From NCBI GenBank assembly GCA_036936605.1, contig JAUPFV010000004.1, positions 136,409,473 through 136,473,472 of the forward strand: a stretch of DNA of 64,000 nucleotides, in the 5' to 3' direction. The notes under the pieces were generated by a model. The model had not been told where the DNA came from and did no database searches. It saw only the letters and a list, made by a program, of their open reading frames with translations. Source of the DNA: Limnanthes douglasii subsp. nivea. Its lineage: Eukaryota > Streptophyta > Magnoliopsida > Brassicales > Limnanthaceae. Position numbers and translations under genes: made by a program. Positions 5,045 through 56,743 of this stretch are shown here, one piece after another. Position 1 is the stretch's first letter, and every line of letters starts with the position of its first letter.

Positions 5045-5229
5045 GAAACTTTTGCGTCTTAAAAAAGTGGCTAGCGACAAGAGACTAAAAAATGTATTTT
5101 AGATTTTGTATTTTAATTTGAAATCATTTGTACAACTCCTTCCCGCAAGAGTATAAATTGTGAACGGCTAAATAAAAAAAAATATCTTTTATTATAATAA
5201 AGAGTTGTACTATCAAATAATTATAAGAT

Positions 5230-6290: not shown

Positions 6291-6587
6291 AACAAATTAA
6301 TACTAACAAAAATGTAATAATAATTTTATAATCATATACAATATCTCAATATTTTTTAAATGATTTTGGTTATTTATAATATTTACAAATAAACCGCGGT
6401 TTGCAGTCCTAAAGGTTTGCTGCGGTTTGAGGTCCTTGCGGTTTATTCCTTATGCGGTTCCGGCGGTTTGCGGTCCTTACGATTTACAGATCTAATGGAC
6501 CAGTTAAATGGTTTACCCGCCGGTTTACAAACAGTTATTCAGCTTTTAACCGCGATTCCAGAACCATTTGCCACCTCTAAATACAAC

Positions 6588-19467: not shown

Positions 19468-19534
19468 ATCACTATTTTCTGTCACAGACACGTTAATACC
19501 CTTTGTTACTTTTCTGTCACAGACACGTTTATCA

Positions 19535-19985
19535 AAATGTAATAATAAAATTATAATCATATAACTTATAATATTATAAAATTATAATATATGGTTTTAG
19601 TTTATGAAAAAATAACATTTAAAATATTAATAATCAAATCATAATAATATCAACCAAATTGTAAAATAAAATTATAACTATTACATTATAATGTTTTTAA
19701 AACTATAACTTAAGATATGATTTTGATTTATAAAATAATTACAACACTTTATAATATTTTTAACCAAATCATATTAATAAGTATCAAAATGTAATAACAA
19801 AATCATAATCATATTACTTCTAATATCTTAAAATTATAAAATATGATTATTTTTTTATTAAATAATAACAACAATAATAATTTAATAACCAAATCATAAT
19901 AATAATATTCAAAATGTGATAGTAACTCTTATAATATTTATAATTAAAATATATGATTTATATAATATTAATTTCATAACTATAA
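19535..19985. repeat. Degenerate copies of the same AT-rich tandem family as in the hAT element
   Basis: The phrases CAAAATGTAATAATAAAATT, ATAATCATATAACTTATAAT, GGTTTTAGTTTAT and CAAATCATAATAAT recur about three to four times with a period near 120 bp. They match the order of markers in the 128-bp units at 5230-6290, including AAAATGTAATAATA near 6309. Confidence 0.6.
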
Positions 19986-21160
19986 TACAAAATTGATTCG
20001 CAGGATTAATAAGTTATTATTATTGGCGTGACTTGGCATGTGCATGATTAACGTGTGCAGGACTCACATATCATTATTGTAAACAGGACTGTGCGTGTAC
20101 AAGACTAACAGTTTGTGGACTAACGTGACATTTTGCAGATACCTATTTAAGTTATGGTGTGTTCTCGTTTATTTTTGACAGGTTTAGTCTCATTTGCCAC
20201 CGAAAACTGCAATCCTCCACCATCTAGCTGCAATATTATATTGAATATTGCAATTTTTGTCTTGATTTGTTTGAATCCACCACCACCAACTCCTCAGTTT
20301 CTTTTTATATTTAGTATTTTCTTTAATGATAAGAAGTTTACTCTTCCGCATTCTAGGTTGACAAGCGAGTGATTGCAATCTGATTTCAAAATAAAAGTTT
20401 CAGTCAGCAAGAACAGACACGTTGGTTAACTTAAAATTTTAAGTTCATTTATAACCATACGTGACATAAATGATTTATACAATAATAATGAGTATACAAA
20501 ATACGTACATTTTTGTTTTAAAGAAAATTAAAATTTTATTGAATCAAAAAAGTTTATACATTCTCAATATTTTATGTTGGATCTTCGTATAATTTTTTCT
20601 TAAAATATTAGAGTTTTATCTATGGTTTCTTCATGTTGAAATACGTTAACTAATACTCTTCTTGATTCAAATTCGATGAAGAAGTTCAGAATTACAACCA
20701 TTTACCTTTTGATTTGAAGTTTTCATAACCTTGTTAATAGTAGTTGGTATTACTTTTTCTATGTTTACTGTTTAAATTTGATTCTCCTCTCTTTCTTGTC
20801 AGCGTGTATGACTTTGGCATATCAAACAAGGGTGAAAAACAAGTTATAAGAAGATGGAGTAATCCTTGTTTTACAAAACTTGACTAATCAAATATTGTTT
20901 GCAACTTAACATATATACATATTGTTATTAATCAAGTCTTAAGTATCTAAAACCTAGACTTTCTAATAATGTTATTTCCTTAAAGGGATTTGATATTTGA
21001 TGGTTATTTAGGTCCAGCCCAACCTCATTTTACATTTCACGATCCATCAAGCAAGTCAATCCGCTGTTTGATTTTGGTTCATTGAGATGTGTTGATAGTC
21101 ATTAATGAATATATTAAATTTATAAAATAGTTTAATAATAGATCTAAGTATCATGGTATC
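19986..21160. other. AT-rich intergenic stretch, no gene recognised
   Basis: No motif-bearing frame is found on either strand. The frame at 20154-20372 contains a short proline run but no family signature, and its composition matches the surroundings. Confidence 0.55.
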
Positions 21161-24840: not shown

Positions 24841-24853
24841 CTGAAAACAGAAT

Positions 24854-25867
24854 ATGAAAATAGCCAAAAATCGAAAGAGAATGGATTCTTTTCCATTTAT
24901 GTTAGTTCTTACTTCCCTGGTCCTAACATACCTTGTGACTGAAGCTTGTGGTAGTCAATCAGAATGGGCGTCCTTATGCGGACAAGCTAACTTCACTACT
25001 AACAGCCTTTACTCATCAAACCGGAGGGATCTTCTTTCTGAATTTTCATCTCTTAAACCAAACAACTACGGATTCTACAACATCTCCGTGGGTGAAAACA
25101 ACAAAGAAACAGCCAACGGAATAGCTCTTTGCAGAGGAGATGTGAAAGAAAGCGCTTGCATTAGTTGTATCAACGAAGCAGCTCAAAGGCTTCCTGTTCG
25201 GTGTTCGATGCATAAAGAGGCGATCCTATGGTCTGGCACTTGTATTTTCCGTTATTCCAACAGGTCTATCTACGGTGAAATGGATCCTAGCGATACCTTA
25301 TTCGTGGTGGGTGACAAAAAGGTGACCGATCCGGATGATTACAGCAAGGTGCTCCCGAACTTGTTAGATTCACTGAGGAACAAAGCGGCCACTGGTGGAT
25401 CTCAACGAAAGTACGCGGCAGGGAATCATCCCGCGGAAGCATTGTTTGAGACTGTTTCAGCCCTTGTTCAGTGCACGCCTGATTTGACTGAGGCCGAGTG
25501 CAATGAGTGTCTTCTTCTTTATATGGGTCGGCTTCCGAAGTGCTGCGAGGGGAAGGTTGAAGGCAGGATAAGTGGGTCTAATTGCGATATTAGATACAGT
25601 ATTGGCAAGTCTTACGAGTCTGATCCTTCTTTTCTGATTTCGTTACCATCGATTTCAAGTTTGAAAGGTACGTCGATTCTGAAGCAGAATGAGATATCCT
25701 TTACTTGGTCTGATCCCAAGGAGCTTATTCTGTTTTCGATATGGTACATTTTTCTTGGTATGCTTAAACCTTTAAAATCCAATTTTGCTGTCTGTTTCGC
25801 AGGTGCAAACTTCATTTGGATTCTTGTCAGCTGTCTGTGCATCCTTATTATCTTTGGCATCGTTTAA
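24854..25867 (+). CDS. Cysteine-rich repeat secretory protein with two DUF26 (Gnk2-like) domains
   Basis: A signal peptide (hydrophobic core FMLVLTSLVLTYLV) is followed by two DUF26 domains, each with the C-x8-C-x2-C signature: CRGDVKESACISC and CTPDLTEAECNEC. The C-terminus is a hydrophobic segment (WILVSCLCILIIFGIV) that could be a membrane anchor. DUF26 proteins act outside the cell in defence or, in the plasmodesmata-located group, in cell-to-cell trafficking. There is no kinase domain. A likely intron runs 25668-25802 (GTACGT to CGCAG). It is 135 bp, a multiple of three and stop-free, so the spliced product is about 292 residues and the retained form 337. Met10 (24881) is an alternative start and is favoured by the TATA position. 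Confidence 0.88.
   Translation: MKIAKNRKRMDSFPFMLVLTSLVLTYLVTEACGSQSEWASLCGQANFTTNSLYSSNRRDLLSEFSSLKPNNYGFYNISVGENNKETANGIALCRGDVKESACISCINEAAQRLPVRCSMHKEAILWSGTCIFRYSNRSIYGEMDPSDTLFVVGDKKVTDPDDYSKVLPNLLDSLRNKAATGGSQRKYAAGNHPAEALFETVSALVQCTPDLTEAECNECLLLYMGRLPKCCEGKVEGRISGSNCDIRYSIGKSYESDPSFLISLPSISSLKGTSILKQNEISFTWSDPKELILFSIWYIFLGMLKPLKSNFAVCFAGANFIWILVSCLCILIIFGIV
25668..25802 (+). other. Predicted in-frame intron of the DUF26 gene
   Basis: Donor AAAG|GTACGT and acceptor TTTCGCAG|GTGC keep the glycine codon and reading frame whichever way it is processed. Splicing joins the second DUF26 domain directly to the hydrophobic tail, the usual spacing in membrane-anchored DUF26 proteins. Retention adds 45 residues. 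Confidence 0.65.
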
Positions 25868-26993: not shown

Positions 26994-27685
26994 CTTATGT
27001 TACATATTTTATTAAATATATTAGTATATTGATTACCCATACATTCGTAATATATTATCAAATAAATTGTAGAGCCCGAAGTGTACCCGTGCAAAATAAT
27101 ATTATAATTAGTAAGGCCACAATGTTGTTATTTTCAAAATTTGTTTAAAATTTGGTTTTTTAAATATTTTATTTTGTCTCATTTAAGTTAAGAGTCATTT
27201 TTTACGTTTAACCATTTTTGAGCTGGAAACTTTGTTGGTCGAATTATATATACTTTGTTTTTGGTTTATAAATAATATATACAAAAGTATTCATTTTTTT
27301 TTATTTCTATTTTATCCGGTTATTGTTTTGAAAACCATCAAAATATTTTAATTTGAAATTGATCTATATAAGATTTTAAAAACTATCTTGCATATCAAAC
27401 ATGTTTCTTCACGAGAATAATAAAATATTATGTGTATAAAGATTGAAACAAAAATGAGACTTTTATAATATAATTTTTCATTCCGAATAAATTTAATAGA
27501 ACTAATATCATCGATCCGAAAGGACAAATAGCACCACAAAGACCAAGATTATGTGAGGTATCATCGTCATATAAGTTTTTCCGTTTTGTTATAAGATTTA
27601 TGTTATTTATGGTGGCTTTAAGTTTAATCAGATACCAGATATTTATAAGAAATGTTATCGTACCTTATAAATTTGATTTCTTAAA
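26994..27685. other. AT-rich DNA flanking the large MULE; right part duplicated at 39079-39196
   Basis: No gene. The part 27566-27694 is colinear with 39079-39190 (shared TTTTTCGTTTTGTTATAA, AAATGTTATCG and TATAAATTTGATTT), so the MULE entered one copy of a local tandem duplication. Confidence 0.65.
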
Positions 27686-27694
27686 TTTTTAAAT
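27686..27694. repeat. 9-bp target duplication, left of the large MULE
   Basis: TTTTTAAAT, repeated exactly at 38901-38909. Nine bases is the Mutator-type target duplication length. Confidence 0.85.
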
Positions 27695-27987
27695 GGCAAA
27701 ATTGTACTTAAAGTACCACTCAACTATTCAATTGTCACTTACCACCCAAGGTTTGATCAATTGTTACTTAATACCCATCTCAACTACCTTATTGTCACTT
27801 ACAACCTAATTTTATTTTAATACCCTAACTACCCTTAACCCACTATATAAACCTTATTTTCTGTTTTCTTTCTATTTTTTCTAGCTTTTGAAGATTTGAA
27901 TTTGTTAGCCGCTCTAACCACCTAACCCTACCAACCACCACGAGCTGGGTTGAAATCACATTTTCCGGTGATCGGAAGCTGCTAAAG

Positions 27988-28729
27988 GTTTGTTTCTTTA
28001 TGTAAGTTGTTGTGTTAGACCTGTCTAACCTATGTTTTATACGTACAGGAATTGATCGTCGCTTTTTGGAATCTTATAGCTTACAAGTAATCGTGTTGCG
28101 AGCTTTTTAGGTGATTACCTACCGATTTCGAAGTTTTTTATTCGTTTTCTCTGTTGGAATAGGTTCTATTGTACTGTTTTTAGATGCCATTGCCTGATTT
28201 CGAGCTTTTCTCTGTTTTTTTTTGTTATAGTGATCTGTTATTGTAGCATAGTTAATATTGTTCGTTATATAGTTATGTCCTTGTTTTCTGATGTTATATT
28301 CTAATTTGGTAGTGCTTTAGTTTTGTCTTGAATGTGTAGATTACGAGTTTTTAGGTCAGTTAGAGTATTGTATTTCGAAACAAATATCAGGACCGGTGTT
28401 ACATAGAAATATCAGGACAGGATGCGAATAGCTCTATGTAGATATACATAATTCGCAAGATAGGATGCGAATAGCTCTATGTAGATATACACAATTCGCA
28501 AGATAGGATGCGAATTGTTTGATGGTGCAGTAAATAATTTGGACAGTTTTTGTGACTAATAACAAATATCAGGACCTTTTTACCCATAAATATCAGGACA
28601 AGCTGCGAATAGCTCGTTGTAGGTATACACAATTCGCACCTTAGGATGCGAATTGTTTGATGGAGTAGTAAATATTTTATTGATGCACCTAGTTTTTGTG
28701 ACTAATAACAAATAACTTGTATTGTCCAG
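27988..28729 (+). other. Predicted 5'-UTR intron of the MULE transposase
   Basis: Donor CTAAAG|GTTTGT and acceptor TTGTCCAG|GTTAAGAG leave the start codon at 28738 eight bases into the next exon. The intron carries the first cluster of TGCGAA dyads. Confidence 0.5.
28421..28654. repeat. TGCGAA motif cluster 1 (5'-UTR intron)
   Basis: Motif starts are TGCGAA 28423, TTCGCA 28452, TGCGAA 28466, TTCGCA 28495, TGCGAA 28509, TGCGAA 28604, TTCGCA 28633 and TGCGAA 28647. Three dyads TTCGCA-N8-TGCGAA (28452/28466, 28495/28509, 28633/28647) have identical 14-bp spacing. A 43-bp unit is duplicated at 28421-28506. TATCAGGAC precedes several motifs. Confidence 0.9.
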
Positions 28730-28737
28730 GTTAAGAG

Positions 28738-31290
28738 ATGTCTAAATCACGAGTTTGTATTTTTAAATATGGTCACCAAACTGCAATTGTGCCTTTCACT
28801 GAGTTTGAAAGCTTCGAAAGTATCCAAGCTTATGTAGAGAACACATGGGAGGAGCTTGCCACAGGTGAGTACCTAATTACTTACTCCTGCGGGGATCACA
28901 ATAATTGTTTCTTTAATAACCAAAATGATTTTGTTGGGTTGGTGTTATATCTTGATTTGGAGCGTTTAAAACGGGTTAGTTTTCTCATAGAACAACATGT
29001 CTTCGATAAGGGTTCTGGTAATAAAAGTTCTGTTGATAAGAGCTCTGGTGGTAAGGATTGTGGTGTAAAGCGTAAAGAGCGTAGCTTGATTTTGGGAGAA
29101 CCATCTCTTGATCAACTTGTTAGCGGGGAGAGTAGTAACGGTTTAGTTAATTCTGATCAGAGGAAAAAACAACTTGCTACTGCTGGTTGGGCTGATGCTA
29201 TTACAGGAGTGGGTCAAGCTTTTGAAGAAGGTGCTGCCGGTCTGAGGGTATCCTTGTGCAAGTTTGCGTTAGAGCATGGTTTTTCTTTCAAATACCTGCA
29301 CAACACAACAAATAAGATCACTGCTTATTGTGAAAATAAGCTCACAAGCGGGTGCAAATGGAGGGTTTATGCATCTATTGACTCAAGCACCGGCCTTATG
29401 ACGAGCAAGAAGCATGTCCCGTACCATACTTGCAGTCCTGTTTTCTCCCAGAAGCATAAGCATAAGCGGCACATGCATTTGACATCAGATTTGATTGCAG
29501 AGGAAATTCAGGATTCTCTCCGGATGTGCCATTCGTTGACAGCCAAAACCATACAATCGACTGTCAAACAAGATTACGGTCTTGACATCTCTTATCGTTT
29601 GTCATGGAATGCTTTAGAGAAGGCTAGGAGGGGAGTTTTTGGAGATAGTTCAAGTTCTTTTAGTTTACTAAGCGGATACTTCAAATGCTTGAAGAGCCGG
29701 GATATAACTTCAGACTGCCAGTTGGAGTTGTCAGCTGGAAACCGATTCAAGCGCTGTTTTGTAGCATTCGGTTCGTCCCTTAGTGGTTTCCATTCATGCC
29801 GTCCAATGTTGTTTGTCGATGGAACCCACTTATATGGCAAGTATAAGGGTACATTGCTCACTGCTGTAGCAAAGGACGGAAACAACGGTTAGTTACATTT
29901 ATCTAGTTAATGAACGATGTTTTTTGTGTGAAAATGCTGATGCAATTCGCAGCAGGTAATGCGAATTAAGCAGTGTTGTGATCCTCACATTTCGCATTTG
30001 AGGCTGCGAATTAGGTATTATGCTGAGTAAACTGTACTTACATCGCAGCTTGAGTTAGGTATTATTTAAAGTTGTCACAAGCTGCGAATGCACATGACAA
30101 GCTGCGAACTGTTTTACATGAGCAATTAAAATGTTACACGTATTTCGCATGACAAACTGCGAATTGTCCAGGTTTGCATGCGAATTGTTTACAATTTTTA
30201 AACGTTTGCATACTGTTGTAGTGTTCATTTGATCTGCCTTTTTCCAGGACTATTCCCTGTTGCTGTTGGTGTAGTTAGCATTGAAGATTGGGACAATTGG
30301 ATGTGGTTTTTGGGGTGTTTGAAACCACATTTGCTGGATCGCCATATCACATTTATTTCAGACCGTCATTCTGGTATTGTTAATGCTGCTTCTGTCTTGT
30401 ATCCAAACTGCTATCATGCGTACTGTTATTTCCATCTCATGCAGAATTTGAAAGCCAAACTGGAACATACTAACAGGGAGTATAAAAAAAAGATGTTGAG
30501 TTTCTTCCACCGTCTTGCTTATGCTCTCAGTCAAGAGCTTTTTAAAGATATACTAACAGGTTTTTTATGTGAAGGTGGTGAGAGAATGAGTGATTTTCTT
30601 GCAAATTTACCCCCCTGAAAAGTATGCGTAGGATTACGTAAAAGGGAAGCGATACGGGTCTATGGCTTCTACCGCAGCTGAATCATTTAACAATCAGATT
30701 AAAAAATATTGCGGCTTACCAATTGTTGAGTTTATTGATTGGATTAGAGTCTTGCTTATGACTCAAGTTTCACGGAGATACGAAGAAGGTCTCAGCTGAA
30801 GTACTAGTTTGGTTCCCGAGTACGAGAAGAAGCTAAAGCAGAATGTTGACATGTGCCGAAGTTGGGTAGTACGTAAGTCCTCTTCCGCCATGTTCGAAGT
30901 CTTTTCGAATCCTGTGGCTGTTGTCAATCTGTTGGATTTCAAATGTTCATGCGGATCATGGCAACAAGAGTGTTTTCCATGTGCTCATGCTCTAGCGGCA
31001 TTACAATACACCGACTAAGATCCATTAACTGTAATAGAACCCTTCTTTACGGTTAAGAATTACAGGGAAAGTTACTCTTTCAGCATACCAGCTATAACTG
31101 ATTTCGGCGAAGGGTCCAGCGCTAACGATCCTTCTTTTGTTGAAGTTCTGCCTCCGAACGTTAAGAGACGCTCCGGAAGGCCTAAGAAAAAACGAATCTC
31201 TTCTAGAGGAGAAATCTCAACCAAGAAGTTAAGGTATGGCCGATGTTCGAAATCAGGCCATAACCGGAGGACTTGTGATGTTCCAGTTTA
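28738..31290 (+). pseudogene. mudrA-like: MuDRA-like MULE transposase, two exons, recently decayed
   Basis: Exon 1 is 28738-29887, then an intron with motif cluster 2, then exon 2 from 30248. The N-terminal DNA-binding region has a C-to-C zinc-binding pattern (TSGCKWRVYASID). Catalytic residues of the DDE core are visible: Asp in FVDGTHLYGKYKG, Asp in FISDRHSGIVNA, Glu in TAAESFNN. A SWIM finger (FKCSCGSWQQECFPCAHA, about 30930-31000) and a C-terminal knuckle (YGRCSKSGHNRRTC) follow, the latter with its first Cys replaced by Tyr. Defects are a frame change in a C-run (about 30609), TAG at about 30632, TGA at about 30797 and TAA at about 31015. Exon 1 is intact for 383 codons. It would cut and join the element ends in the nucleus if functional. 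Confidence 0.9.
29888..30247 (+). other. Transposase intron carrying TGCGAA motif cluster 2
   Basis: Donor AACG|GTTAGT and acceptor TTTCCAG|GACTATTCC rejoin the frame as NNGLFPVAVG, the conserved MULE sequence. Nine motifs lie inside (starts 29946, 29960, 29991, 30005, 30083, 30103, 30144, 30158, 30179), including three dyads with 14-bp spacing. The flanking exons hold none. Confidence 0.85.
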
Positions 31291-31412
31291 AGGACAATTC
31301 TGGTTGGTCATATCACATTTATTTTTGTAGCATAGTTATTGTTCTGCACAGCAAACTAAACATTTGTACATTCCTGTGTTTTTGTATTTGCTACTATTGG
31401 AGTTGTAAACAT

Positions 31413-31910
31413 TTCGCATCCTGTGCTGCGAATTATGTACAATACGTTGGAGATTTGTTACAAACATCTATCAGGATTACATGCGAATTATGTACAATTA
31501 TGTGAAATTTTAACAGGATGCGAATCGTTGGTCAAATAATATCAAACATTTATCATATCTTACGTTTCGCATGATAGGATGCGAATTAGGGTCGGAATTG
31601 TGATGCGAATGGAGATCAATTAGAAGTCCTGATATTTGTCATATGACAAGCTGCGAATTGTAAGTTAATAAAAATACCAGGATATTCAGTAAGGTTGAAA
31701 ATAAGTAATATAGCAGGTTAACATGCGAATGATGTACAAAATGTGTTTGGATGCGAATGGAGATCAATTAGAAGTCCTGATATTTGTCATATGACAAGCT
31801 GCGAATTGTAAGTTAATAAAAATACCAGGATATTCACTAAGGTTGAAAATAAGTAATATAGCAGGTTAGCATGCGAATGATGTACAAAATGTATTTGGAT
31901 GCGAATCCTT
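31413..31910. repeat. TGCGAA motif cluster 3 with a 148-bp tandem duplication
   Basis: About thirteen motifs lie downstream of the transposase stop. Dyads with 14-bp spacing are at 31413/31427 and 31566/31580. A unit of 148 bp starting ATGCGAATGGAGATC is repeated almost identically at 31603 and 31751, each copy with GTCCTGATATTTGTC and AAGCTGCGAATTGTAAG. Confidence 0.88.
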
Positions 31911-32056
31911 TATATCATTGAAAATCTGTAAACAAGTTGGATTACAAAAAGGAGGATTACAATATTTCCAGAAACTAACAACTGTTTACACATATCACTA
32001 CAAGCTACTGGTGCTAGTTAGTTGCATTTCAAAAAAACAAAAAACAAAAACCAACT

Positions 32057-32611
32057 CTAGCAGTTGGTAGAGGATTCATCACCAACTGTTTCCTCTTTCT
32101 CCTCTTTGTGCTGATCATCTTTGTCTTTCTCATCTTTGTCTTCGACTTTCTCTTTCTCTTCAGCTTCAATATCTACGTCCATCATGCTTAAAAATTTTGT
32201 CCTTGATGGACCAGCTTCGTCTTCCCTCTTCCTTTTGTTGTTTCGAACCTCTGGCTGAGGTGCAGCAGGAAGCATTGGAACCTGTTCTGGCTGAGGTTCA
32301 GCAGCAACCTGTGAAATAACTTCCACTGGTTGAGAGTCAGCAGAGTAGTAGTCATCATACATGTCTAGTTCGAAGACAGAGACTGGGCTGGGGGGTTGTA
32401 CTGTTGGCATGATCAACTCATCACTCCAGTTAACGGTTAAGGATGACCAGGAGTCACCCAGAGAACCAAGTGAACTAGAGTTTGAGTATGAGGTGGTTGT
32501 TGTGGTGGTGGAAGACATGACTGTTTGAATTCGAAGAGAAGAAGAGGTGTTTTTAAAAAAATATAGAGTTTGGTGTAAAGTTAGCCTTTGGTTACTACTA
32601 GAGGTATGCAT
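32057..32611 (-). CDS. Small acidic, NLS-bearing ORF of the MULE (unrecognised)
   Basis: An uninterrupted minus-strand frame of 184 codons. A second Met at 32518 gives 153 residues and starts a serine/threonine-rich region, which seems the more natural beginning. The middle is proline- and glutamine-rich with an aromatic/acidic patch (FELDMYDDYYSAD). A basic cluster NNKRKRE looks like a nuclear localisation signal. The C-terminus is an almost pure Glu/Lys/Asp run. I recognise no family. Of the MULE's three genes it is the only one with no internal stop. It sits between the transposase and the protease gene, with motif clusters on both sides. It could be an accessory regulator, but this is inference. 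Confidence 0.5.
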   Translation of the reverse strand: MHTSSSNQRLTLHQTLYFFKNTSSSLRIQTVMSSTTTTTTSYSNSSSLGSLGDSWSSLTVNWSDELIMPTVQPPSPVSVFELDMYDDYYSADSQPVEVISQVAAEPQPEQVPMLPAAPQPEVRNNKRKREDEAGPSRTKFLSMMDVDIEAEEKEKVEDKDEKDKDDQHKEEKEETVGDESSTNC

Positions 32612-32784
32612 AGGGAAAGGGGGTAATCATTACATAGCCTCCATGTCCAATCAGCATTTAATGAATTATGTACTTGATTAGATTGTTTTTTGTGTGCTCA
32701 ATGTAGAAAACGTTTACCAAGGCATAAGCCACACCCTGTTCGTATCCTTGTACTTTGTATTTTTAATATTTTATTTATGCACCA

Positions 32785-32985
32785 GGCTGCGAACTGGTTT
32801 TAAGCTGGTGTACTAGGCTGCGAACTGTATGTGTAGTGATAACCATCTACCAGGTTAGGCTGCGAACTATTTGATATAAGTTAGTATGTGAACTGTTCAT
32901 ACAGGTTAGGTTGCGAACTGTTCATACATACCAGAGTAAACTACCAGGATCATAATCAACCAGTATATATCAGGTTATGATGCGA
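32785..32985. repeat. TGCGAA motif cluster 4
   Basis: Five GCTGCGAACTG-type half-sites plus one decayed GTATGTGAACTG lie between the small ORF's promoter side and the end of the protease gene. TATCAGGTTATGATGCGAAC near 32970 shows the composite TATCAGG plus TGCGAA arrangement. Confidence 0.8.
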
Positions 32986-33417
32986 ACTATAAGATAAGGA
33001 ATATTCAAATTTCTGAAAATGTAATTTTTTTATGTATGCACAACAAAACTAAAAATTACAACAGATGTATTTACAAGCAACTAATGTATTTACAAGCAAT
33101 ACACGAATCAGCCATATGCGATGCGGTCTTTGTCATTTAAAAAGTAATAGAACATTTCTGCTCTGAAGGCAGAAACCATATCTGCATCGTATTTTTTCTG
33201 CACTAATCCATGCTCAATAATATCCCTTGCCTATTTGCAGACGAAGACACCACAGTCCATGGTGCCTCGCTTTTGTTGTGGGATGCCTCTTTCCACTTTC
33301 ACCTTCCACCCTGTACTATATTTGGGTAGGAATCCTCTATCCAACAAATATTTGATCTGTGTATAATAATTAGTGTTAGGAATATGCACAAAAACAAAAA
33401 TAGTTGGTGACATACAA

Positions 33418-33655
33418 TTCGCATCCTCAGGCTGCGAATTATATGACAATGAATCCAACACAATTCGCACCTTAGGCTGCGAATTGAATGACAGCCTTCA
33501 TAGGCTGCAAATTGAGTTATGGACAGGCTGCGAATTGAGTTATGAACATGCTGTGAATTGAGTTGTGGACAGGTTGCGAATTGTATCCAACATGGATAGG
33601 CTGCGAATTGAGTTACGGATAGGCTACGAAAAAACAATTGATTTACTCACAATTC
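33418..33655. repeat. TGCGAA motif cluster 5 (protease-gene intron)
   Basis: Eight motifs lie in the intron between the exons carrying catalytic His and Cys. Dyads are 33418/33433 (15-bp spacing) and 33464/33478 (14 bp). Further GGCTGCGAATTGAGTTA half-sites recur with spacing of about 23-75 bp. One copy has decayed to GGCTGCAAATTG. Confidence 0.88.
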
Positions 33656-34625
33656 GCAGCATACCAGATCTCATTTTGCAGCATGCATACTTAAAATGTG
33701 TTCAAGATTTAAGTGTATAGTTTGGAATATTTACCAGTAGTGCAGGTGTCCTTGTGGTGGTGTCTGTGGCATGAAGCTTAGGCAGAAGCGAATTGTAATT
33801 TAAAATTGTCCTGCCGTCGACGTCGATGACGAGCAACGTCCAGTGGTTTACATTGTCCTTCGTCTTGGTGCACACTGGAACCATGATGATGTTGGCATTT
33901 TTGCGCCCCTTCCTAAAAGCCATGTCCACCAAATTTTCCACTTGCCACCCTGCTCTCATTTGATGCTGCATCCAAGCAAGAGTATATTAAAGTGAGAACA
34001 TTTCGGAGAACTTTGTTCAATTTACCTGAGCTAAACTTACCGCAGTCATGCCAGAAATCAGTATGGCGTCGTGATGCTCTCCTTTAGCTTTAGTATATGG
34101 GACTTTGTAGTCTGCTTCTTCAAGCATCTTTTGAATCCAAGCATCGATAAGCTAACAAAGGAGTTGTAGATTTATGTTAAATATAGAATACATATTTGAA
34201 ACATTGAAAATAGAATTGGTTGACAATTGGATACCTTTACGTCCAGCTCCAGTTCTAAAGGTAGTGCCATGACATCACTCTCTTGCACCCTGATTCCGTA
34301 TGTAAACTTGGACTCTGGTAACTGCCATACCACTGGATCAGGGGTGTCGCTCTCGTAGGCTTTAACCAACTGTATCTTGTGGTATTCTGCCACATCGATA
34401 CGGTCAGTTACTTTTGTTTTCTTTGGCCAGTCGCTGTATTCTACTACTGGCGGTTCCCGTATTGTTATTACGAACTCTTCTTCTTCCTCTGCCACTTGAG
34501 GCTGCGTTTGTGTCAGTAGCGCAAAACTTGGCTCCTCTATCTCTTTACTGGGCTCGAGCTTAGTAAATAACAAAAATCAAAAGTAGAAGGGCGTTAGTGA
34601 TTATAAGTGCAACGAGTTCAAACAG

Positions 34626-34795
34626 TTCGCATCTTAGGCTGTGAAATATAAGGTTCCAGTAAAATAAATTTTAGTATCTATCAGGGTAGGGTGCGAACTG
34701 TTCGAGGTTCCACTGAACAGTTCGCATCCTACCCTGATATTGGTTTGTAATACCCCATTCAGCATTAGACACAAATCTTATGTTATGATGCGAAA
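34626..34795. repeat. TGCGAA motif cluster 6 with a 25-bp-arm hairpin
   Basis: TTCGCA 34626 pairs at 14-bp spacing with a decayed half-site TGTGAA at 34640. At 34679-34738 two composite motifs face each other: left arm TATCAGGGTAGGGTGCGAAC, right arm its complement with one mismatch, loop of about 11 bases. A further TGCGAA is near 34788. Confidence 0.88.
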
Positions 34796-35269
34796 TCATT
34801 ATAAGTAGGCCTTACCGCACGGTCAGCGACAACCACTGCCGTTGACTTGTTCGGCATAGGATCTGGATCGTGTCGGCAGAAATCATTAAAGTCATCCTCC
34901 GACATGTTCTCCAAAGACCGTTGTATTATAGAATCGTAATATACATTATCAATTTCATTTAAAAATGTCTGTGAAACTTGAGTGTAAATACCATCAACAA
35001 AAGCATCGGGTAAACCTACTGTGTTATCATGGGACTCTGGAGCTGGCAGTTGATTTGTTACCGGGCCTACAGTTTGACGTTATCTTAGCAATTCTGACTT
35101 TGCTGACAGCACCGTTGGTCTTTGAGGTTCCACCGAAGAAGTGGTTTTGTCTTCTAAGGATGGTCCTTCATGGCTGAGTAGTTCTGTCTTCTCACCGGGA
35201 TGGACATGTTCTGACTCTTGAGGTGTTATCTCTTGAGTTAGCCTTTCTCTCTTCGCCAAGGTTATCTGT

Positions 35270-35457
35270 GGCTGCTGGGGTTGTTGCTGGTGGTGTTCTT
35301 CTTCTTGTTGTTGTTGGGGGTGTTCTTCTTGTTGTTGCTGTTCGTGTTCTTCTTGGTCTTGTTGTTGCTGGTTGTGTTCTTCTTGGTCTTGCTGTTGGGT
35401 TTGTTGTTGTTGTTGTTGTTGTTCTTGTTGCTGTTGCTGGGGGTGTTCTTCTTCTAG

Positions 35458-35501
<44 letters not shown>

Positions 35502-35619
35502 GCTGGGGGTGTTCTTCTTGTTGTAGCTGTTGTTGTTGTTGCTGCTGTTGTTCTTGTTGCTGTTGTTGTTGTTGTTGCTGGTCTTGCTGTTTCTGCTGGT
35601 GGTGTTGTTGTCTTTCTGT
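35270..35619 (-). repeat. Polyglutamine-coding CAA/CAG repeat in the protease gene
   Basis: About 115 of the codons here read Gln on the minus strand, interrupted by Glu, His, Pro and Asp, with a pure TTG run near 35456-35502. Slippage expansion is likely. Plus-strand frames through this block (Cys/Val-rich) are artefacts of the repeat. Confidence 0.85.
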
Positions 35620-35663
35620 CTCCAATGGTTAAGCATAAGTTAATCATTGGTGAGAACGATTCG

Positions 35664-35780
35664 CATCCTGACCTGATATATATGTTATACATTCCTAACA
35701 ATTCGCAGCTCAGCATGCGAATTGTGTAATAACCAACCCACCAGTTTATTACATAATTCGCAGCTTAAGCTGCGAAACGT
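35664..35780. repeat. TGCGAA motif cluster 7 (protease-gene intron)
   Basis: Two dyads with exact 14-bp spacing, 35702/35716 and 35757/35771, plus a single TTCGCA near 35660. The second has a fully symmetric centre (TTCGCAGCTTAAGCTGCGAA). Confidence 0.9.
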
Positions 35781-36709
35781 TTGGACAGGACTACACAAGA
35801 GTCCTGATATTTCTTTGATAGCATCATATCATCTACTTACATTATCTACCTCCTCTGTATGTGTCTCCATGATGAGTGAATTGTGGGCACCATTGTCCCT
35901 TTCTTCCGGCAGTACTCCATGAGCATGGTGCTGATCAGCATTAGACACGGATGCTTGCTGATCAGTGGATTTTTGTCCCTCTGGAAGTGCTGATGGTACC
36001 TGCTTTATTGGGCTTTCAATACGGCAAATTTGCTGAGAGATAGCATTGTGGAGTTGTTGTGCTTCAAGTTCCGCTATCTTGCGTTTCAATTCTTTCAGTT
36101 GCAAAAATGATAGCAAACTTTTTAGAAACATATTAAGTGCTGATTGTAGTGATTATTTAAGATTCAAGTCATACTTACTTCTCTGGCCTGTTGATCTATT
36201 TTTCGCTCGTACTTGTTCTTGTCGGCGTATGTCTTCAAACGCTTTGATTGAGGAGCAATATCGGGATTAGGTTCTCTGCGTTTGAATAAATAATCACCGA
36301 TTGTTTCACTCATACTAGTTGTGTCGGTGTCGGAGGGCTCTTGCCTGGATTTGCCTTTCGGTTGTGGGGAATCGTTTTCTTGGGGAGTCTTGGTGGTGGA
36401 ATCGATGGCTCGGGTGGTGTTGGGTGTTCGATGGGAGACATCACCTTATTCATTACATTCTGTGATGCTCGTCTCCTTTGTTTTGGTTTTGATGCTGTGC
36501 TTTTCGTCCTCTTCCTAGGTCTTTCTTCCGGTGAAGTAGATACCGTTGCTTCTGCATCTTCATTATCTTCTTGTGGTCCGAAAGCTTCAATTTCAGCCTC
36601 GGTAAGCTGTAATGGACCTTCTAAAACCTACCAACAGATGCACATGTAAGTAAATTAATGGTTTCAAAAGTATGAGGGTGTAGACAAATAAATTTTTTTT
36701 TATAAACAG

Positions 36710-36990
36710 TTCGCATCACATGATGTGAAATGTGTGATTTTAAATCACATTTCGCATGCTGAGCTGCGAAATGCGTATGGGACAATATGCTGCGAACTTT
36801 ATGCAAAACATATGATGCGAACTAAATGTAAACCATATGATGCGAACTAAGTGTGAACCATATGATGCGAACTAAGTGTGAACCATATGATGCGAACTGT
36901 GTTGAAAAAGAAGCTGCGAAGTAAAATTCATATGAGGCTGCGAAATGATTGAAACATTTTTCTAAGCAAAACGCATGATATGCTGCGAAC
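36710..36990. repeat. TGCGAA motif cluster 8 (protease-gene intron)
   Basis: A dyad at 36751/36765 and a half-decayed dyad 36710/36724 (second half TGTGAA). Then a run of direct copies CATATGATGCGAACTAA with spacing of about 25 bp at 36816-36895, and three more half-sites to about 36985. Confidence 0.88.
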
Positions 36991-38043
36991 TGTAGGGTGT
37001 TCTAATAAGATATGTCATGGTTGATGCTTGGCACTCTAACCCCAACCATTTGAAAAACCTTGGTAACGAGGTTGGCTTCGCTACCTCGTGGCCGATTGTT
37101 GTGTGCTCCATGATGAAGGGCTGCATGGGGACAAGTTTTATCAACACGATGCGATGTACATAACTAATTTTTATATTGAATAGATCAATCTTACAGCTAC
37201 AAGGGCGACGCAGCCGACGACTTTATCAGCTCTTTCTACTGCTAAGAAACTCCTGATAGACTGTCGAAGCTTGAACAGTATTGATCCAGCCCAGTCATAA
37301 TTGTTTATTCTATTGAGGTCTTCAACGTAATAAACCGTGCTCCAGCCCAGGATATCTCCAGATACGGAGTAGAATAGCGTGGAGCAAAAAAACAGTATCA
37401 ACAGCCTCGCCACGTCTTCCAATTCATGATCCCCTCCTTCGTTTATGGCCTTCTCTATACCCTCCTGTAAAACCAATGACAACATGCTATGTTAGAAATG
37501 TATAGAATCTTGCTCTATAAAGATGAAGTCCATTTTAGATGTACCTTTATAATGACATTTGTTATTGTTTTGGTATTACTAGCTGCTACCTTCCTGCCAG
37601 TTTTACCCATGAAGTATTTCTTCATCATCCTTGATTCGTCCTCCTCGCCGGGTGCATACTTGTTGTGAAAAGCTCCGGTTTTTGTTAACTCCATTTTCTC
37701 GGTGCCATGCCTCAACCTGAATATGATCTTGATATCATTTTCAGTTAGCTTTACATACTTGTTGCCAATCCTAAAGGCGTCTCTTTCCAGAGAGAATTTC
37801 TCGATGATATACTAAATGATTTGGTAGAATTTTTTCCTTGGAAGCTCTTCCTCATTACGGATTTCGAACGCCATTTTCAGAAGCGTGTAGAATGGTGTGT
37901 TTCTTGCAGCTTCAATGTGGGCCCTTGTAATACGCATTTCTTTGAGTAGCTTCACAAGGCTCACCAACCCTGATCTGTAGTAGCTAGGTTTTGTTGTCAT
38001 ACTTTCTGCACAAACACAAATCAGTTGGAATGTCAGAAAATAG

Positions 38044-38162
38044 TTTGCATCACAAGCTGTGAATTGTATACATATAAATATTGTTTTAACAGACAATTCG
38101 CAGCTCAAGCTGCGAATTGTTTGTAAATAAGTATAAACATACAATCGAGTTGCGAATTGCTT
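38044..38162. repeat. TGCGAA motif cluster 9
   Basis: A dyad at 38097/38111 (TTCGCAGCTCAAGCTGCGAA) and a fully decayed dyad at 38044/38058 (TTTGCA and TGTGAA, same 14-bp spacing). A half-site GTTGCGAATTG follows near 38152. Confidence 0.85.
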
Positions 38163-38778
38163 GCATTGTGGGTGATCAGGATGCAAACTGTTACACTTTT
38201 TACATGCACGTTGCAGGGATCTGGGAATTATGCAACAAACACCAAAATCAACAATGAACTACCTAATGCAGATCTAACATACATAATATTTCTCAGGAGA
38301 GTATTATTATTACATGCAACTAAAATTCTACCCTTGCTTCGACTATAAACCCATAAACTGAGAAACTATCGTCAGTAGATACTTCATTCTAGTATAAAAA
38401 GCAACGCATATCGTGAATTAAGAGAAAAAAGTGGTTCAAATTGTTAAAAAACGCAAAACAAAGTACGTTTTCCACGATAATCCATACCTGTTAAATTTCA
38501 CCGGCCGGAGAACGAGATTGAAGCTTTCAGAGACGACTTCACGACAACTTTGTCGAAAGAGATTGAAGGTGTGTAGTCTGAGTGAGTAAAAGACGCTGAC
38601 CGGTGCGATAGTGTCGAAGGTGCGAACGGTGAGAAGCTGTAGGGTTTTTGGGTTTGAGAGAGAGAGAGAGTATCACGAAGTCGAACGGTTTGTTTTCTGG
38701 TGGTTTCTAAAATTAGAATTTTGCGTTTGTTTAGGGTGATAGGAAGGTCGAAAAAGTGGGTTGGAATTGAAAAATGGG

Positions 38779-38786
38779 TATATATA
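38779..38786 (-). promoter_or_regulatory. TATA box for minus-strand transcription from the MULE right end
   Basis: On the minus strand CCACTATATATACCC lies about 115 bp inside the right end. The left end carries CCACTATATAAACC about 150 bp inside. The pair forms matching inward promoters for the two cargo strands. Confidence 0.5.
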
Positions 38787-38900
38787 GTGGAATGGTATTT
38801 TTGTCCAATTTATTAGTCTGGGTATTAAGTAACACTATGTTAAAAGCGGGTACCGCCGGGTAATAAGATAGTTGAGTGGATATTTTCAGGTACTTTTCTC

Positions 38901-38909
38901 TTTTTAAAT
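38901..38909. repeat. 9-bp target duplication, right of the large MULE
   Basis: TTTTTAAAT, identical to 27686-27694. Confidence 0.85.
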
Positions 38910-39078
38910 TCTCAAAATGATTATCTATATACACTTTCAAATCACTCTTTATGTTGGTTTAATTTACAACGTTGTTTGTATCTATTTTGAAAATCGTAAT
39001 TTTGATATATGTGTCATATCCTATTTATTTCAAGTCTGAAGTCTGGAAACTATAGTATTGTCCTTATGTAAATTTTTT

Positions 39079-39510
39079 CGTTTTGTTATAATATAAATGG
39101 GTGTCTTAAGTTTAATTATATATCCGAAATTTATAACAAATGTTATCGGATCCTATAAATTTGATTTTTTAAAATTTAAAAATTTTTAAATGATTATTCC
39201 CTCCGTCCTAAAATATATGTTTTTTTAAGTTATGTACGGATATTAAGAAATATAATAATTAGATCTCTTTTTTTATAAAAAGCACAAAAAAAAGTCTAAT
39301 TGGTAGATGATTATAAATAATATTAAAATTTGTATTGGTAATCGAGAACGACATGTATTATAGAAAAAAAATATTTCCTAGAACCACAAATACTTAAGCA
39401 CGGAGGGAGTATCTATTTACACTTTCACATCACTCTTTATGTTGGTTTAATTTACAATGTTGTTTGTATTTATTTCAAAAATCGTAATTTAAGCAAATTG
39501 ATTGGAATAA
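39079..39510. repeat. Paralogous empty target site of the MULE, split by a Stowaway MITE
   Basis: 39079-39196 matches the MULE left flank (27566-27694). 39410-39500 matches the right flank (38925-39010; shared ATCACTCTTTATGTTGG). Joining the two MULE flanks with one TTTTTAAAT gives a 33-bp string that aligns without gaps to about 39164-39196, with several substitutions. This independently fixes the MULE boundaries. Confidence 0.7.
39197..39409. mobile_element. Stowaway-like (Tc1/mariner) MITE, 213 bp
   Basis: The left end is TTCCCTCCGTCCTAAAATA and the right end read inward is CTCCCTCCGTGCTTAAGTA, the Stowaway CTCCCTCCGT signature. TA dinucleotides flank it at 39195-39196 and 39410-39411. 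Confidence 0.85.
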
Positions 39511-39589
39511 GTCAAAAATTGTATGGTGTTTGAAATTTCTTTCATTTATATAATTTAATGAAGATACGTAAATATTTCAAGTTTCATTA

Positions 39590-41297
39590 AAAACAATTGG
39601 GTAAAGTACCATTCAAAACCCAATACTCAAAGTAAGACTCATATTTTTATATATTTCCAAAAAAGATATGTTTCTTGTGAAATATTTACTATTAAAGATC
39701 CACTAATACCCTAAATACCCATACTCTATAATATAAAAGGCTTTTAGACCCATTCTTCACATTTTTCCACAATTGTTTTTTCTCGTTTCGTAAATAGAAC
39801 AACTCTGTATTAGGCGATTCTTTCATTTTTTTTACTCGATTTTTTGTTTTTCTTTTGTTTTCATATGATTTTGATTTGTGTTTTTACTTGAATATGCGAA
39901 GATACTCAATGTTTTTTGTGTTTGAAACTCGAATTTGAGCTCGAAATCACTGTTTTTTAAGATCTATTTTCGTTCGTTTTCGTAGTGTTTCGAGTCGAAA
40001 TTTTTGTTAGTTTTGAGTTCGAATTATGGTAATGTAGTTTATTTGTAGCATTGTATTAGTGTTTTGTTGATTTTAGTGTTTTATTTTGTGTTTTTGAGAT
40101 TTTTAGTCGCGTAACAGGTTCTGGGTTTTCGGTGAAAGAGATGCGAAACGTGTATGTTTCTTCACTGGTAGATGCAAAACATGTTTTGTAATAGATGTGA
40201 AATGTTTGGATCTGTACCTACTGATAGTTGCGAAACGTTTAATCCTTATGAAATGGTAGATGCAAAAAAATACATTCTTGATATATGCGAAACTTTATTT
40301 GTTCTATTTTTTAAAAAATTCATAACATATTATGAATGGTACTAGTTTGTTCGTCTTTAAAAAACAAAACCAACGTTATTTTCAGATTTTTTTTTGAGTT
40401 ACGGTTTAAAAGATACAGACTTTTAAAGTTTTAAAATTTTTAGGGTTTCGCGAAGAAGATGCGAAACCTTCTTCGTTATGATAATGTGAAACCTGTTTTG
40501 TTGTGCTAGATGCGAAACCTTCTTTATTTTGCTAGATGCGAAACCTTCTTTATTTTGCTAGATGCTAAACCTTCTTTAGTTTGATAGATGTGAAACTTTC
40601 TTTATTTTGATAGATGCGAAACCTTCTTTATTTTACTAGATGAGAAACCTCTTTGTTTTGATAGATTTGAAACTTTTTTTTTATTTTGGTAGATGCGAAA
40701 CCAGCCACTAGATGCGAAACATGTGTAAAATATAATTTAAAAAAAATCAAAACATATCATGAATAGTACTAGTTTTGTTTGTCTTAAAAAACAAAACCAA
40801 TGATATTTTCGGACTCTTTTTCTGAATTACGGTTTAAAAGATACATACCTTTAAAAATTAAAATAAAAAAAAAACAAAAAAAGAGAAGTTGATTATTGTA
40901 TTTTATATAGAAGGTTATTTAATGTATAAAGTCCCTTAATTTTTTTAGATTTTTATCCGTAATATATTTGTTAAATGGATCTTTATTGGTAAGTCTCCTT
41001 TTTTCTTATTTCATTAAGAAATTGCATATTTAAATCTAATGAATATTCAACGCATTTGCATACATTTATTAGATAAAATTTATAAAAAAAATTGCATTAG
41101 TGACATATATCTACATGAAATTAAAGATAATACAAATTTGCTAGTTTAAAAAATTGTTTTTTTACATTTTTAATTAATCGGAGATATTGAAATTTTTGTG
41201 TAGTGGCAACATTTACAAAAAAGGATTTGGGAACTTCTTTCAAATATATAGTAACTACTTTCCCATACAGTCTATTTAATGTCTGCAAATAAAGTAT
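39590..41297. mobile_element. Probable decayed relative of the large MULE, right end uncertain
   Basis: The left part (GGGTAAAGTACCATTCAAAA at about 39599, AATACCCTAAATACCC and CTATAATATAAAAGG near 39710-39745) parallels the left terminus of the 11.2-kb MULE (AAAGTACCACTCAAC, AATACCCTAACTACCC, CTATATAAACC). It lacks a recognisable gene. It carries the array at 40130-40720 and two direct copies of a segment of about 110 bp (about 40320-40440 and 40738-40850). I could not place a matching right end or target duplication. Confidence 0.45.
40130..40720. repeat. GATGCGAAAC(C) motif array
   Basis: The phrase TAGATGCGAAACCTTCTTTA and variants recur about 15 times, mostly in one orientation. Clean copies are near 40141, 40458, 40509, 40535, 40614, 40693 and 40709. 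Decayed forms read GATGTGAAAC, GATGCAAAAC, GATGAGAAAC or GATGCTAAAC. The core TGCGAA is shared with the large MULE, but the flanking bases and spacing differ. Confidence 0.8.
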
Positions 41298-56000: not shown

Positions 56001-56465
56001 GAAGCTTTCCCATAAAGAGATTCCTGATATACTATCTCTCAGAACAAAGTTACCTGTGTCTAAAAGAACTGCCTCTGACTTATTAGATAAGAGGGTAATA
56101 TTGGTTGACCAAACAGTTTTGTCTGTCCCATCTGCAAGCCTTATATTTCCATTGTTGTCTATCTTTAAACTAGCAGATGAATCTGAAGCTGTAAGTGGTG
56201 TCTCCCGGTTGGCCACCCAAACAAATCTTCGAACAGAGATTTTCTTGTACCATAATCCAAGATACCGGTTACCAGAGTCACCAAGACTGAAGAAGCCTAA
56301 TTCAAAGTTTTGGCTGCTGGACACAAGAGTTTCGTTTACAGACATCTGTATGGACGGGCTCAAAATCTCTATCGCAAAGCCGGACGGCAATAGAGAAAAC
56401 ATACTAACAAGAAACATAGACATTAAGACCACGCGATTAAGTGGTAACAAATCCATGCAACGCAT
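53054..56465 (-). CDS. G-type lectin S-receptor-like serine/threonine kinase (SD1 type), seven exons
   Basis: Exons are 56465-55145, 55057-54944, 54811-54651, 54564-54354, 54196-53959, 53600-53450 and 53350-53054. They sum to 2493 bp, giving 830 residues, usual for this family. A signal peptide precedes a B-lectin domain ([20 protein letters not shown]), the S-locus glycoprotein region ([13 protein letters not shown]) and a PAN region ([16 protein letters not shown]). Exon 2 encodes the membrane span ([20 protein letters not shown]). The kinase has [10 protein letters not shown], Lys in [18 protein letters not shown] and APEYAMQG, so it looks active (RD type). The DUF3403-like tail ends SEIDAR. 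It would sense extracellular ligands at the plasma membrane. Met4 is an alternative start. Confidence 0.93.
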
Positions 56466-56743
56466 GATTTAAAAGGGAACACAAGAGTAGTTGAGATGCT
56501 GCTCAAATCATCAGCTCTGGTTGAAGTAGAATTACAAAGCTTCAACTGAATCCCCTTGCGTATAATTTTAACGAACTGATATCTCACAGGTGTACCTAAT
56601 AAAATATAGGATCGCAAATATACAAGGACTGTTGGAGATAAGAGACAGACTAGCTTAAAAATCAAACATGACTAGCATAATGGTGTTTCTTGCTTTTTAA
56701 GAAAGCACCAATTTTTTTGGTTTCCACCATGTGCTCCATTTTT

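What the first reader, a model, noticed from the sequence alone, without database searches (positions are those of the whole stretch)
28420..38165. Regularly spaced dyad TTCGCA-N8-TGCGAA fills the noncoding DNA of the 11.2-kb MULE: candidate element-specific regulatory or anti-silencing code
By eye I count about 65 TGCGAA/TTCGCA hexamers between 28423 and 38157, where only a few are expected in AT-rich DNA of this length. All lie in the 5'-UTR intron, the transposase intron, intergenic spacers or protease-gene introns; none lies in the exons I could define. At least 13 opposed pairs have exactly 14 bp between starts: 28452/28466, 28495/28509, 28633/28647, 29946/29960, 29991/30005, 30144/30158, 31413/31427, 31566/31580, 33464/33478, 35702/35716, 35757/35771, 36751/36765, 38097/38111. 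The N8 centre varies, so spacing rather than sequence is kept, as for a dimeric DNA-binding protein. In Arabidopsis VANDAL MULEs, VANC proteins bind short motifs clustered in the element's noncoding DNA and reverse its silencing. A Kaonashi-type analogue with another motif would be new to me. The element's own transposase, its protease or the small ORF could be the binder.
Basis: partly seen in the sequence, partly recalled or inferred. Interest (0 to 1): 0.88.

Follow-up and report, generated by a model that had tools for sequence, protein, structure and literature searches.

The report
Transposon family's own paired binding sites
An abundant family of plant jumping genes carries dozens of copies of a short, often paired DNA signal in its longer non-coding stretches, most likely the docking site of a protein the element makes to escape silencing, and a sister family in the same genome uses the same core signal in an unpaired form.

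Summary
The 11.2-kb MULE (27695-38900, 9-bp target duplication) holds 67 TGCGAA/TTCGCA, all non-coding, none in 5.9 kb of exons; shuffles average 2.6, at most 8. The 13 dyads never occur in 1000 shuffles. The window's own genome (1.78 Gb) holds 15,513 N8 dyads, against 152 with N7, 438 with N9 and 10 for the reversed pattern. Ten of ten fetched copies chosen by transposase carry the motif, and cores are better conserved than other non-coding words in four of four comparisons. A sister clade carries TAGATGCGAAAC instead: 147 of 148 sites in one orientation, no dyads, in 21 loci. Same core, different flanks and architecture in one nucleus point to an element-encoded binder, best the PMD/DUF1985-like Ulp1 gene: a VANC/Kaonashi-type anti-silencing system. 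That kind is known in Arabidopsis (review passages), so this is a new variant: CpG-centred core, and paired versus oriented single sites. Binding and anti-silencing were not tested; the key Arabidopsis paper (EMBO J 2022) was not held.

The parts
27695..38900 (.). MULE of family A, the motif-bearing element; ends show only short degenerate inverted similarity
   Evidence: 9-bp duplication on both sides; no inverted repeat of 25 bp or more joining the two ends was listed
27686..27694 (.). left copy of the 9-bp target-site duplication TTTTTAAAT
38901..38909 (.). right copy of the 9-bp target-site duplication TTTTTAAAT
28738..29887 (+). transposase exon 1 (MuDR-type DNA-binding domain PF03108)
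30249..31290 (+). transposase exon 2 (MULE PF10551, SWIM PF04434); broken by one frameshift and three stops
32060..32518 (-). small acidic open reading frame, no Pfam family above cut-off; relatives in 6 of 8 dyad-chosen loci
33108..38000 (-). gene with N-terminal PMD/DUF1985-like region, poly-Q middle and Ulp1 (C48) C terminus; candidate VANC-type binder; broken by three stops and one frameshift
   Evidence: exons and splice sites (edges of exons 5 and 6 less certain); C48 E 2.9e-4 and 1.1e-3 in two exons; PMD best E 6.8e-5 (3 of 6) and DUF1985 E 0.032 (1 of 6) among six family sequences
28423..28652 (.). motif cluster upstream of the transposase start: 8 hexamers, 3 dyads (28452/28466, 28495/28509, 28633/28647)
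29946..30184 (.). cluster in the transposase intron: 9 hexamers, 3 dyads (29946/29960, 29991/30005, 30144/30158)
31413..31905 (.). cluster downstream of the transposase: 13 hexamers, 2 dyads (31413/31427, 31566/31580); includes a 148-bp tandem duplication
32788..32986 (+). cluster between the small ORF and the Ulp1 gene: 5 hexamers, no dyad
33418..33658 (.). cluster in the last intron of the Ulp1 gene: 8 hexamers, one dyad (33464/33478) and one 15-bp pair (33418/33433)
34626..34794 (.). intron cluster: 4 hexamers; one partner at 14 bp is a CpG-transition half-site
35660..35776 (.). intron cluster: 5 hexamers, 2 dyads (35702/35716, 35757/35771; the second is a perfect 20-bp palindrome)
36710..36989 (.). 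intron cluster: 11 hexamers, 1 dyad (36751/36765), 25-bp tandem array
38097..38156 (.). cluster upstream of the Ulp1 gene: 3 hexamers, 1 dyad (38097/38111)
38621..38626 (+). single outlying hexamer near the right end
28384..35810 (.). span of the seven exact ATATCAGGA words in the element (28384, 28409, 28566, 28590, 31627, 31775, 35802); part of them are the alternative left half-site, 14 bp before TGCGAA
   Evidence: places; register
39591..41008 (+). separate 1.4-kb non-autonomous element carrying the family-B motif: 10 TGCGAA, all in one orientation
   Evidence: 9-bp duplication TTTCATTAA at 39582 and 41009
40457..40702 (+). 26-bp tandem array (unit AGATGCGAAACCTTCTTTATTTTGAT) of that element

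Best explanation
The hexamer is the core of a binding site for a protein encoded by this MULE family. In family A the site is often two-part with a fixed 14-bp register: a right half YARGM-TGCGAA-YTGT, and a left half that is either the mirror TTCGCA (dyad) or (A/C)TATCA(GG). The likeliest reader is the element's PMD/DUF1985-like Ulp1 gene, acting as a VANC/Kaonashi-type factor: it binds many sites across the introns and spacers of its own family's copies and reverses their silencing. Shown: enrichment, restriction to non-coding DNA, exact spacing, conservation among copies, and a sister family with the same core but other flanks and a single orientation. Inferred: that a protein binds, which protein, dimer binding, and the anti-silencing outcome.
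For: Enrichment and non-coding restriction. Genome-wide N8 15,513 (reversed control 10), N7 152 (control 27), N9 438 (control 13). Of 8 fetched dyad-chosen clusters, 8 match the transposase (one by only 31 residues) and 7 the Ulp1 gene, with 355 non-coding and 1 exonic hexamers. Ten of ten fetched transposase-chosen copies carry 11-16 hexamers beside exon 1 and none in it. Cores identical at aligned places 41/48, 27/52, 31/49, 23/36 against 57%, 30%, 32.5%, 27.5% of other non-coding words. Family B: 147 of 148 sites in one orientation, 0 dyads in 21 loci; A and B are two strongly supported groups. In L041 and L042 orientation follows the element through genes on opposite strands, so the signal acts on DNA. 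Literature: VANC21 binds YAGTATTAY in non-coding VANDAL21 DNA, VANC6 targets have AGTTGTCC/AGTTGTAC (passages of PMC5735166); KIU genes (passages of PMC13317346).
Against: No binding, methylation or expression data. Pfam support for DUF1985 is marginal (1 of 6, E 0.032); the window's own N terminus matched no Pfam family and PMD was far below its cut-off where the score was shown (14.6 against 34.9 bits). That N terminus found no relative at E <= 0.001 in a word-limited search. L041 and L042 gave no match to the Ulp1 exons. Single sites of family A are not uniform in orientation: 212 forward, 78 reverse in nine loci. No 10.5-bp phasing stood out in the window. The window's transposase and Ulp1 gene are both broken.
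Confidence: 0.64

Rival explanations
1. The sites are element-specific transcriptional enhancers bound by a host transcription factor that the family has recruited.
For: Clusters lie just upstream of both main genes as well as in introns; fixed spacing suits a dimeric factor.
Against: Two sister families in one nucleus have different flanks and architecture around the same core, with no exchange in what I sampled: 0 GATGCGAAAC in 9 family-A loci, 0 GMTGCGAAYTG in L041, L042 and the window's family-B element and in 18 further family-B loci. One host factor would not be expected to ask for that. Sites fill introns over 10 kb.
Confidence: 0.14
2. The sites are transposase binding sites that help transposition, like sub-terminal repeats of other DNA transposons.
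For: The transposase has a MuDR-type DNA-binding domain and many transposases bind repeated short motifs (recalled).
Against: The first 728 bp have no site and the last 744 bp only one, at 38621; sites are internal and in introns, the reverse of sub-terminal repeats.
Confidence: 0.08
3. RNA-level signals (intron structure, splicing or processing) rather than DNA sites.
For: Dyads would form hairpins in RNA; many sites are intronic.
Against: In the family-B loci L041 and L042 sites keep one orientation relative to the element (42 of 43) through genes on opposite strands, so they are sense in one gene and antisense in the other; sites also lie in spacers; family B has no dyads.
Confidence: 0.05
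4. Passive spread of a repeat unit by tandem or satellite expansion without function.
For: Five tandem arrays contain motif units; tandem spread is also how VANC targets are said to evolve (passages of PMC5735166).
Against: 48 of 67 sites lie outside the masked arrays; spacers between sites have diverged more than cores; the spacing of 8 is exact across 15,513 dyads, with variable centres in the places listed; exons are free of it.
Confidence: 0.04

Closest known systems
VANDAL21/VANC21 and VANDAL6/VANC6 anti-silencing systems of Arabidopsis
   Same: Multi-gene MULE; short family-specific motif repeated in introns and spacers but not in coding DNA; partial tandem organisation; related families with different motifs.
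   Different: Published motifs YAGTATTAY and AGTTGTCC/AGTTGTAC contain no CpG; here every core has one. Head-to-head dyads with a fixed 14-bp register are not mentioned in the passages read; the whole papers were not read.
Kaonashi (KIU) VANDALs, VANC genes with an Ulp1 domain
   Same: Three genes, one with an Ulp1 domain; own motifs in non-coding DNA (review PMC13317346, passages).
   Different: The Arabidopsis KIU motif could not be looked up; dyad architecture; the two sister-family loci examined gave no match to the Ulp1 exons.
PMD proteins (MAIN, MAIL1) and the DOWN promoter motif
   Same: The N-terminal region matches PMD weakly; MAIN and MAIL1 act in TE silencing and in expression of genes that carry a promoter DNA motif (PMC7156037, passages).
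   Different: Host genes without an Ulp1 part (recalled); that motif was not compared here.

Membership tests
VANC-type anti-silencing MULE (VANDAL) | MULE transposase with MuDR DNA-binding, MULE and SWIM domains | tested here: met
VANC-type anti-silencing MULE (VANDAL) | Short family-specific motif concentrated in non-coding DNA, absent from exons | tested here: met
   (1 exonic hexamer in 8 loci)
VANC-type anti-silencing MULE (VANDAL) | Motifs partly in tandem repeats | tested here: met
VANC-type anti-silencing MULE (VANDAL) | Related families have different motifs | tested here: met
   the core is shared, flanks and arrangement differ
VANC-type anti-silencing MULE (VANDAL) | VANC gene with DUF1985 and DUF287 | tested here: inconclusive
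   DUF1985 in 1 of 6 family sequences at E 0.032; PMD in 3 of 6, best E 6.8e-5; DUF287 not listed
VANC-type anti-silencing MULE (VANDAL) | Degenerate terminal inverted repeats | tested here: inconclusive
   no inverted repeat of 25 bp or more joining the ends was listed; short shared stretch CACTCAACTAT
VANC-type anti-silencing MULE (VANDAL) | Protein binds the motif and removes DNA methylation from copies | not testable with these tools
   needs binding and methylation data
Kaonashi (KIU) | Ulp1 (C48) domain in the VANC-like gene | tested here: met
   two exons match C48: E 2.9e-4 (21.2 bits, cut-off 20.7) and 1.1e-3 (19.3 bits, just below it)
Kaonashi (KIU) | Phylogenetic placement with Arabidopsis KIU genes | not tested
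Transposase sub-terminal repeat sites | Motif concentrated near the element ends | tested here: not met

The most novel reading that the evidence does not exclude
The family A protein reads its target as a dimer whose half-site holds the very CpG that silencing methylates, so binding is gated by CG methylation. Head-to-head sites in A, with an alternative CpG-free left half TATCA, and oriented single sites in B descend from one arrangement by gain or loss of a second half-site 14 bp away (direction not tested). This would be an architectural switch in an anti-silencing code, caught between two sister families in one genome.
Probability: 0.25. Interest if true: 0.82.

Novelty: new variant of a known kind. 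Interest (0 to 1): 0.64.

Why it matters
How anti-silencing proteins of transposons find only their own family, and how that specificity changes, is an open question studied so far mostly in Arabidopsis (recalled). Here one genome holds two sister families whose two motif versions each occur more than 10,000 times, with a shared core and clean differences in flanks, orientation and pairing. It gives a natural series for testing which protein changes track which target changes. The CpG in the core would let one test whether binding itself senses methylation.

Tried and rejected
Structure of the Ulp1-gene N terminus: the model of exon 1 alone (three rows) had mean pLDDT 39.5 and was not used. 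Relatives of that N terminus: none at E <= 0.001; nothing convincing among solved structures (best E 1.3, 0.19). Profile comparison with the PMD tails of P0008, P0009 and P0013 was weak (probability 18.5%, E 0.0013, 41 columns). Helical phasing of sites in the window: no clear 10.5-bp peak (0.15, against 0.215 at 11.75). ATATCAGGA with one mismatch is only mildly enriched in the whole window (30 against 19.7, 1 of 100 shuffles as high). The viral-contig scan with the extended dyad gave one locus, L001, not followed. A more distant MULE family (L040; 32-36% identical over the matched parts) has 2 hexamers in 8 kb and no strong motif. Literature: one search listed no paper; one search listed five, none on transposons by title, not opened. 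The library lacks EMBO J 2022 e110070, so I cannot exclude that a similar motif is printed there; what I recall of its abstract (DUF1985, DUF287 and Ulp1 gained and lost; motif sequence, density and helical periodicity) comes from no call. Genome-wide counting of the TATCA half-site did not complete; it rests on 19 fetched loci, ten of them near-copies.
Full report
Observation. The element is a discrete insertion, 27695-38900, between two copies of TTTTTAAAT. In its non-coding DNA I find 67 hexamers; 1000 dinucleotide shuffles give a mean of 2.55 and at most 8. The 13 dyads never arise in those shuffles. TGCGAA is the most over-represented of all hexamers there. With refined exons there are 0 hexamers in 5897 bp of exon; all 9 non-coding segments of 210 bp or more carry 4-13 and all 5 short introns (74-83 bp) carry none. 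Masking tandem arrays leaves 48 hexamers and 11 dyads.

Shape of the site. Aligning the 67 sites gives an extended half-site, about YARGM-TGCGAA-YTGT; 361 sites from eight other loci give the same picture. So the spacer of the dyad is not free at its ends, although its centre varies. Where the left partner is not TTCGCA it is often (A/C)TATCA in the same register: in 19 family-A loci, both strands, TATCAGG occurs 135 times and starts 13 bp before TGCGAA 49 times, against once at any other distance from 6 to 30; in 21 family-B loci it occurs 6 times and never near TGCGAA. Ten of the 19 loci are close copies.

CpG. 67 of 137 CpGs in the element's non-coding DNA lie inside the hexamer; outside it the observed/expected ratio is 0.50, in exons 0.63, in two stretches of flanking DNA 0.97 and 0.75. 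When sites are sought in the window by flanks alone (a profile trained on the intact sites), threshold 6 gives 48 intact cores and 9 with one change, of which 7 are CpG transitions. In 21 family-B loci 50 of 85 one-change cores are CpG transitions; in 9 family-A loci 12 of 22. This is the mark expected of methylation at the motif itself in decaying copies. The window copy is a decaying copy: its transposase has one frameshift and three stops, its Ulp1 gene three stops and one frameshift.

Other copies. The window's assembly has 1.78 Gb. It holds 15,513 TTCGCA-N8-TGCGAA; the reversed control pattern gives 10. N9 gives 438 (control 13); by their letters nearly all of the places listed look like one inherited site, the window's 33418/33433. 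N7 gives 152 (control 27). The start of the N8 list shows nine groups of places; I fetched eight and left one single dyad. Of the eight, 8 match the transposase (one by only 31 residues), 7 the Ulp1 gene, 6 the small ORF; they hold 355 non-coding and 1 exonic hexamers, the latter in about 29 kb matched as exon. These were chosen by the dyad. As a sample not chosen by it, I took 10 of the 107 places scored for transposase exon 1 (14,685 first-look candidates; only the best, 95-100% identical, are scored). The ten are 96-98% identical, without stops in that exon. All ten carry 11-16 hexamers and 2-5 dyads in about 820 bp beside the exon and none in it. They are close copies and share ancestry with the window.

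Conservation. Aligned to four of the eight dyad-chosen loci (C1a, C1c, C1d, C1g, the most complete), the window's cores are unchanged in 41/48, 27/52, 31/49 and 23/36 cases, against 57%, 30%, 32.5% and 27.5% of other non-coding hexamers, and 62%, 34%, 32.5% and 24% of other CpG-holding hexamers. Words overlap and sites are clustered, so the resampling values in that call (0.0014 or less; 0.0038 or less against CpG words) are rough. Sites do turn over: gains and losses, many by CpG transition, are listed.

A sister family with another version. TAGATGCGAAACC, seen in a small element right of the MULE (39591-41008, own 9-bp duplication), occurs 10,069 times in the genome against 22 for the reversed control. 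Two loci chosen by it hold a related transposase (L042 42-49% identical, pieces of L041 35-51%) and, in L041, a related Ulp1-gene N terminus (43-59%). They carry TGCGAA with different flanks, 42 of 43 in one orientation, with no dyads and no GMTGCGAAYTG, while 9 family-A loci have no GATGCGAAAC. I fetched 18 more family-B copies out of about 120 places scored for transposase exon 2 (61-86% identical to L042). All 18 agree: 95 sites in the non-coding stretches next to that exon, all forward, 0 reverse, 0 in the exon, 0 dyads, 0 GMTGCGAAYTG. With the window's element the total is 147 forward and 1 reverse in 21 loci. Family A differs: besides its dyads, nine loci have 212 forward and 78 reverse single sites. 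A tree of transposase exon 2 (38 rows) puts 6 family-A and 19 family-B rows in two groups, each strongly supported, and together in one strongly supported group. In L041 and L042 I found no match to the three Ulp1 exons; L042 was cut at 10 kb and L041 is decayed, so loss of that part is possible but not shown. A more distant MULE, L040, has no such motif, so which of the two arrangements is older was not settled.

Which protein. In L041 and L042 sites keep their orientation through genes on opposite strands, so the signal is on DNA, not RNA. The outer 730 bp or so at each end of the window element have one site in all, which speaks against the transposase. One host factor would not easily explain two exclusive versions in one nucleus. 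The Ulp1 gene is the natural candidate: its N-terminal region is shared by both families (47% identical) and resembles the plant mobile domain (3 of 6 family sequences, best E 6.8e-5) and marginally DUF1985 (1 of 6, E 0.032); the window's own sequence matched neither. DUF1985 is one of the two domains marked in VANC proteins (PMC5735166, figure legend passage). I could not model this region.

What is known. Passages read in PMC5735166 and PMC10398659 show that VANC proteins bind family-specific short motifs in non-coding DNA, partly in tandem repeats, and bring about loss of methylation. Passages of the review PMC13317346 say that Kaonashi (KIU) genes are VANC genes with an Ulp1 domain and that KIU-carrying VANDALs have motifs of their own. 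So the kind is known. What I did not find in the passages read is a CpG-centred core, a two-part site with a fixed 14-bp register, and two sister families that share a core but differ in architecture. The central paper, EMBO J 2022 e110070, was not held, so part of this may be in print.

Verdict. A new variant of VANC/Kaonashi-type target code, with strong sequence evidence for function and only inference for mechanism.

Noticed in passing
39591-41008: A separate 1.4-kb non-autonomous element lies 0.7 kb right of the MULE, with its own 9-bp duplication and a 26-bp tandem array of the sister family's motif.
   Followed up: yes
27558-27693, 38919-39002, 39055-39181, 39407-39490: The MULE sits inside an old two-unit direct repeat; the second unit is split by a short insert with ends CCCTCCGTCC and ACGGAGGGAG and shows one copy of the MULE's target 9-mer.
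   Followed up: partly
35280-35611: The Ulp1 gene encodes a long poly-glutamine stretch from an imperfect 66-bp repeat; against locus C1c most other exons of that gene are less alike (54-81%) than most transposase parts (82-86%, one short piece 60%).
   Followed up: no
L040 (own genome C112:243809001-243817000): Another MULE, transposase 63% identical to a Daucus carota protein (P0006) but 32-36% to the window's, has no enriched TGCGAA motif.
   Followed up: partly
5184-6344 and 19532-19993: Two blocks of a related AT-rich repeat, not connected with the MULE.
   Followed up: no
10245-11315: Open frame that reads like a retrotransposon reverse transcriptase (judged by eye, no domain search).
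   Followed up: no
24845-25867; 55077-56468 and 59600-60145 (minus): Open frames that read like cysteine-rich receptor-like and S-locus lectin-type receptor kinase genes, the latter in a duplication; names judged by eye.
   Followed up: no
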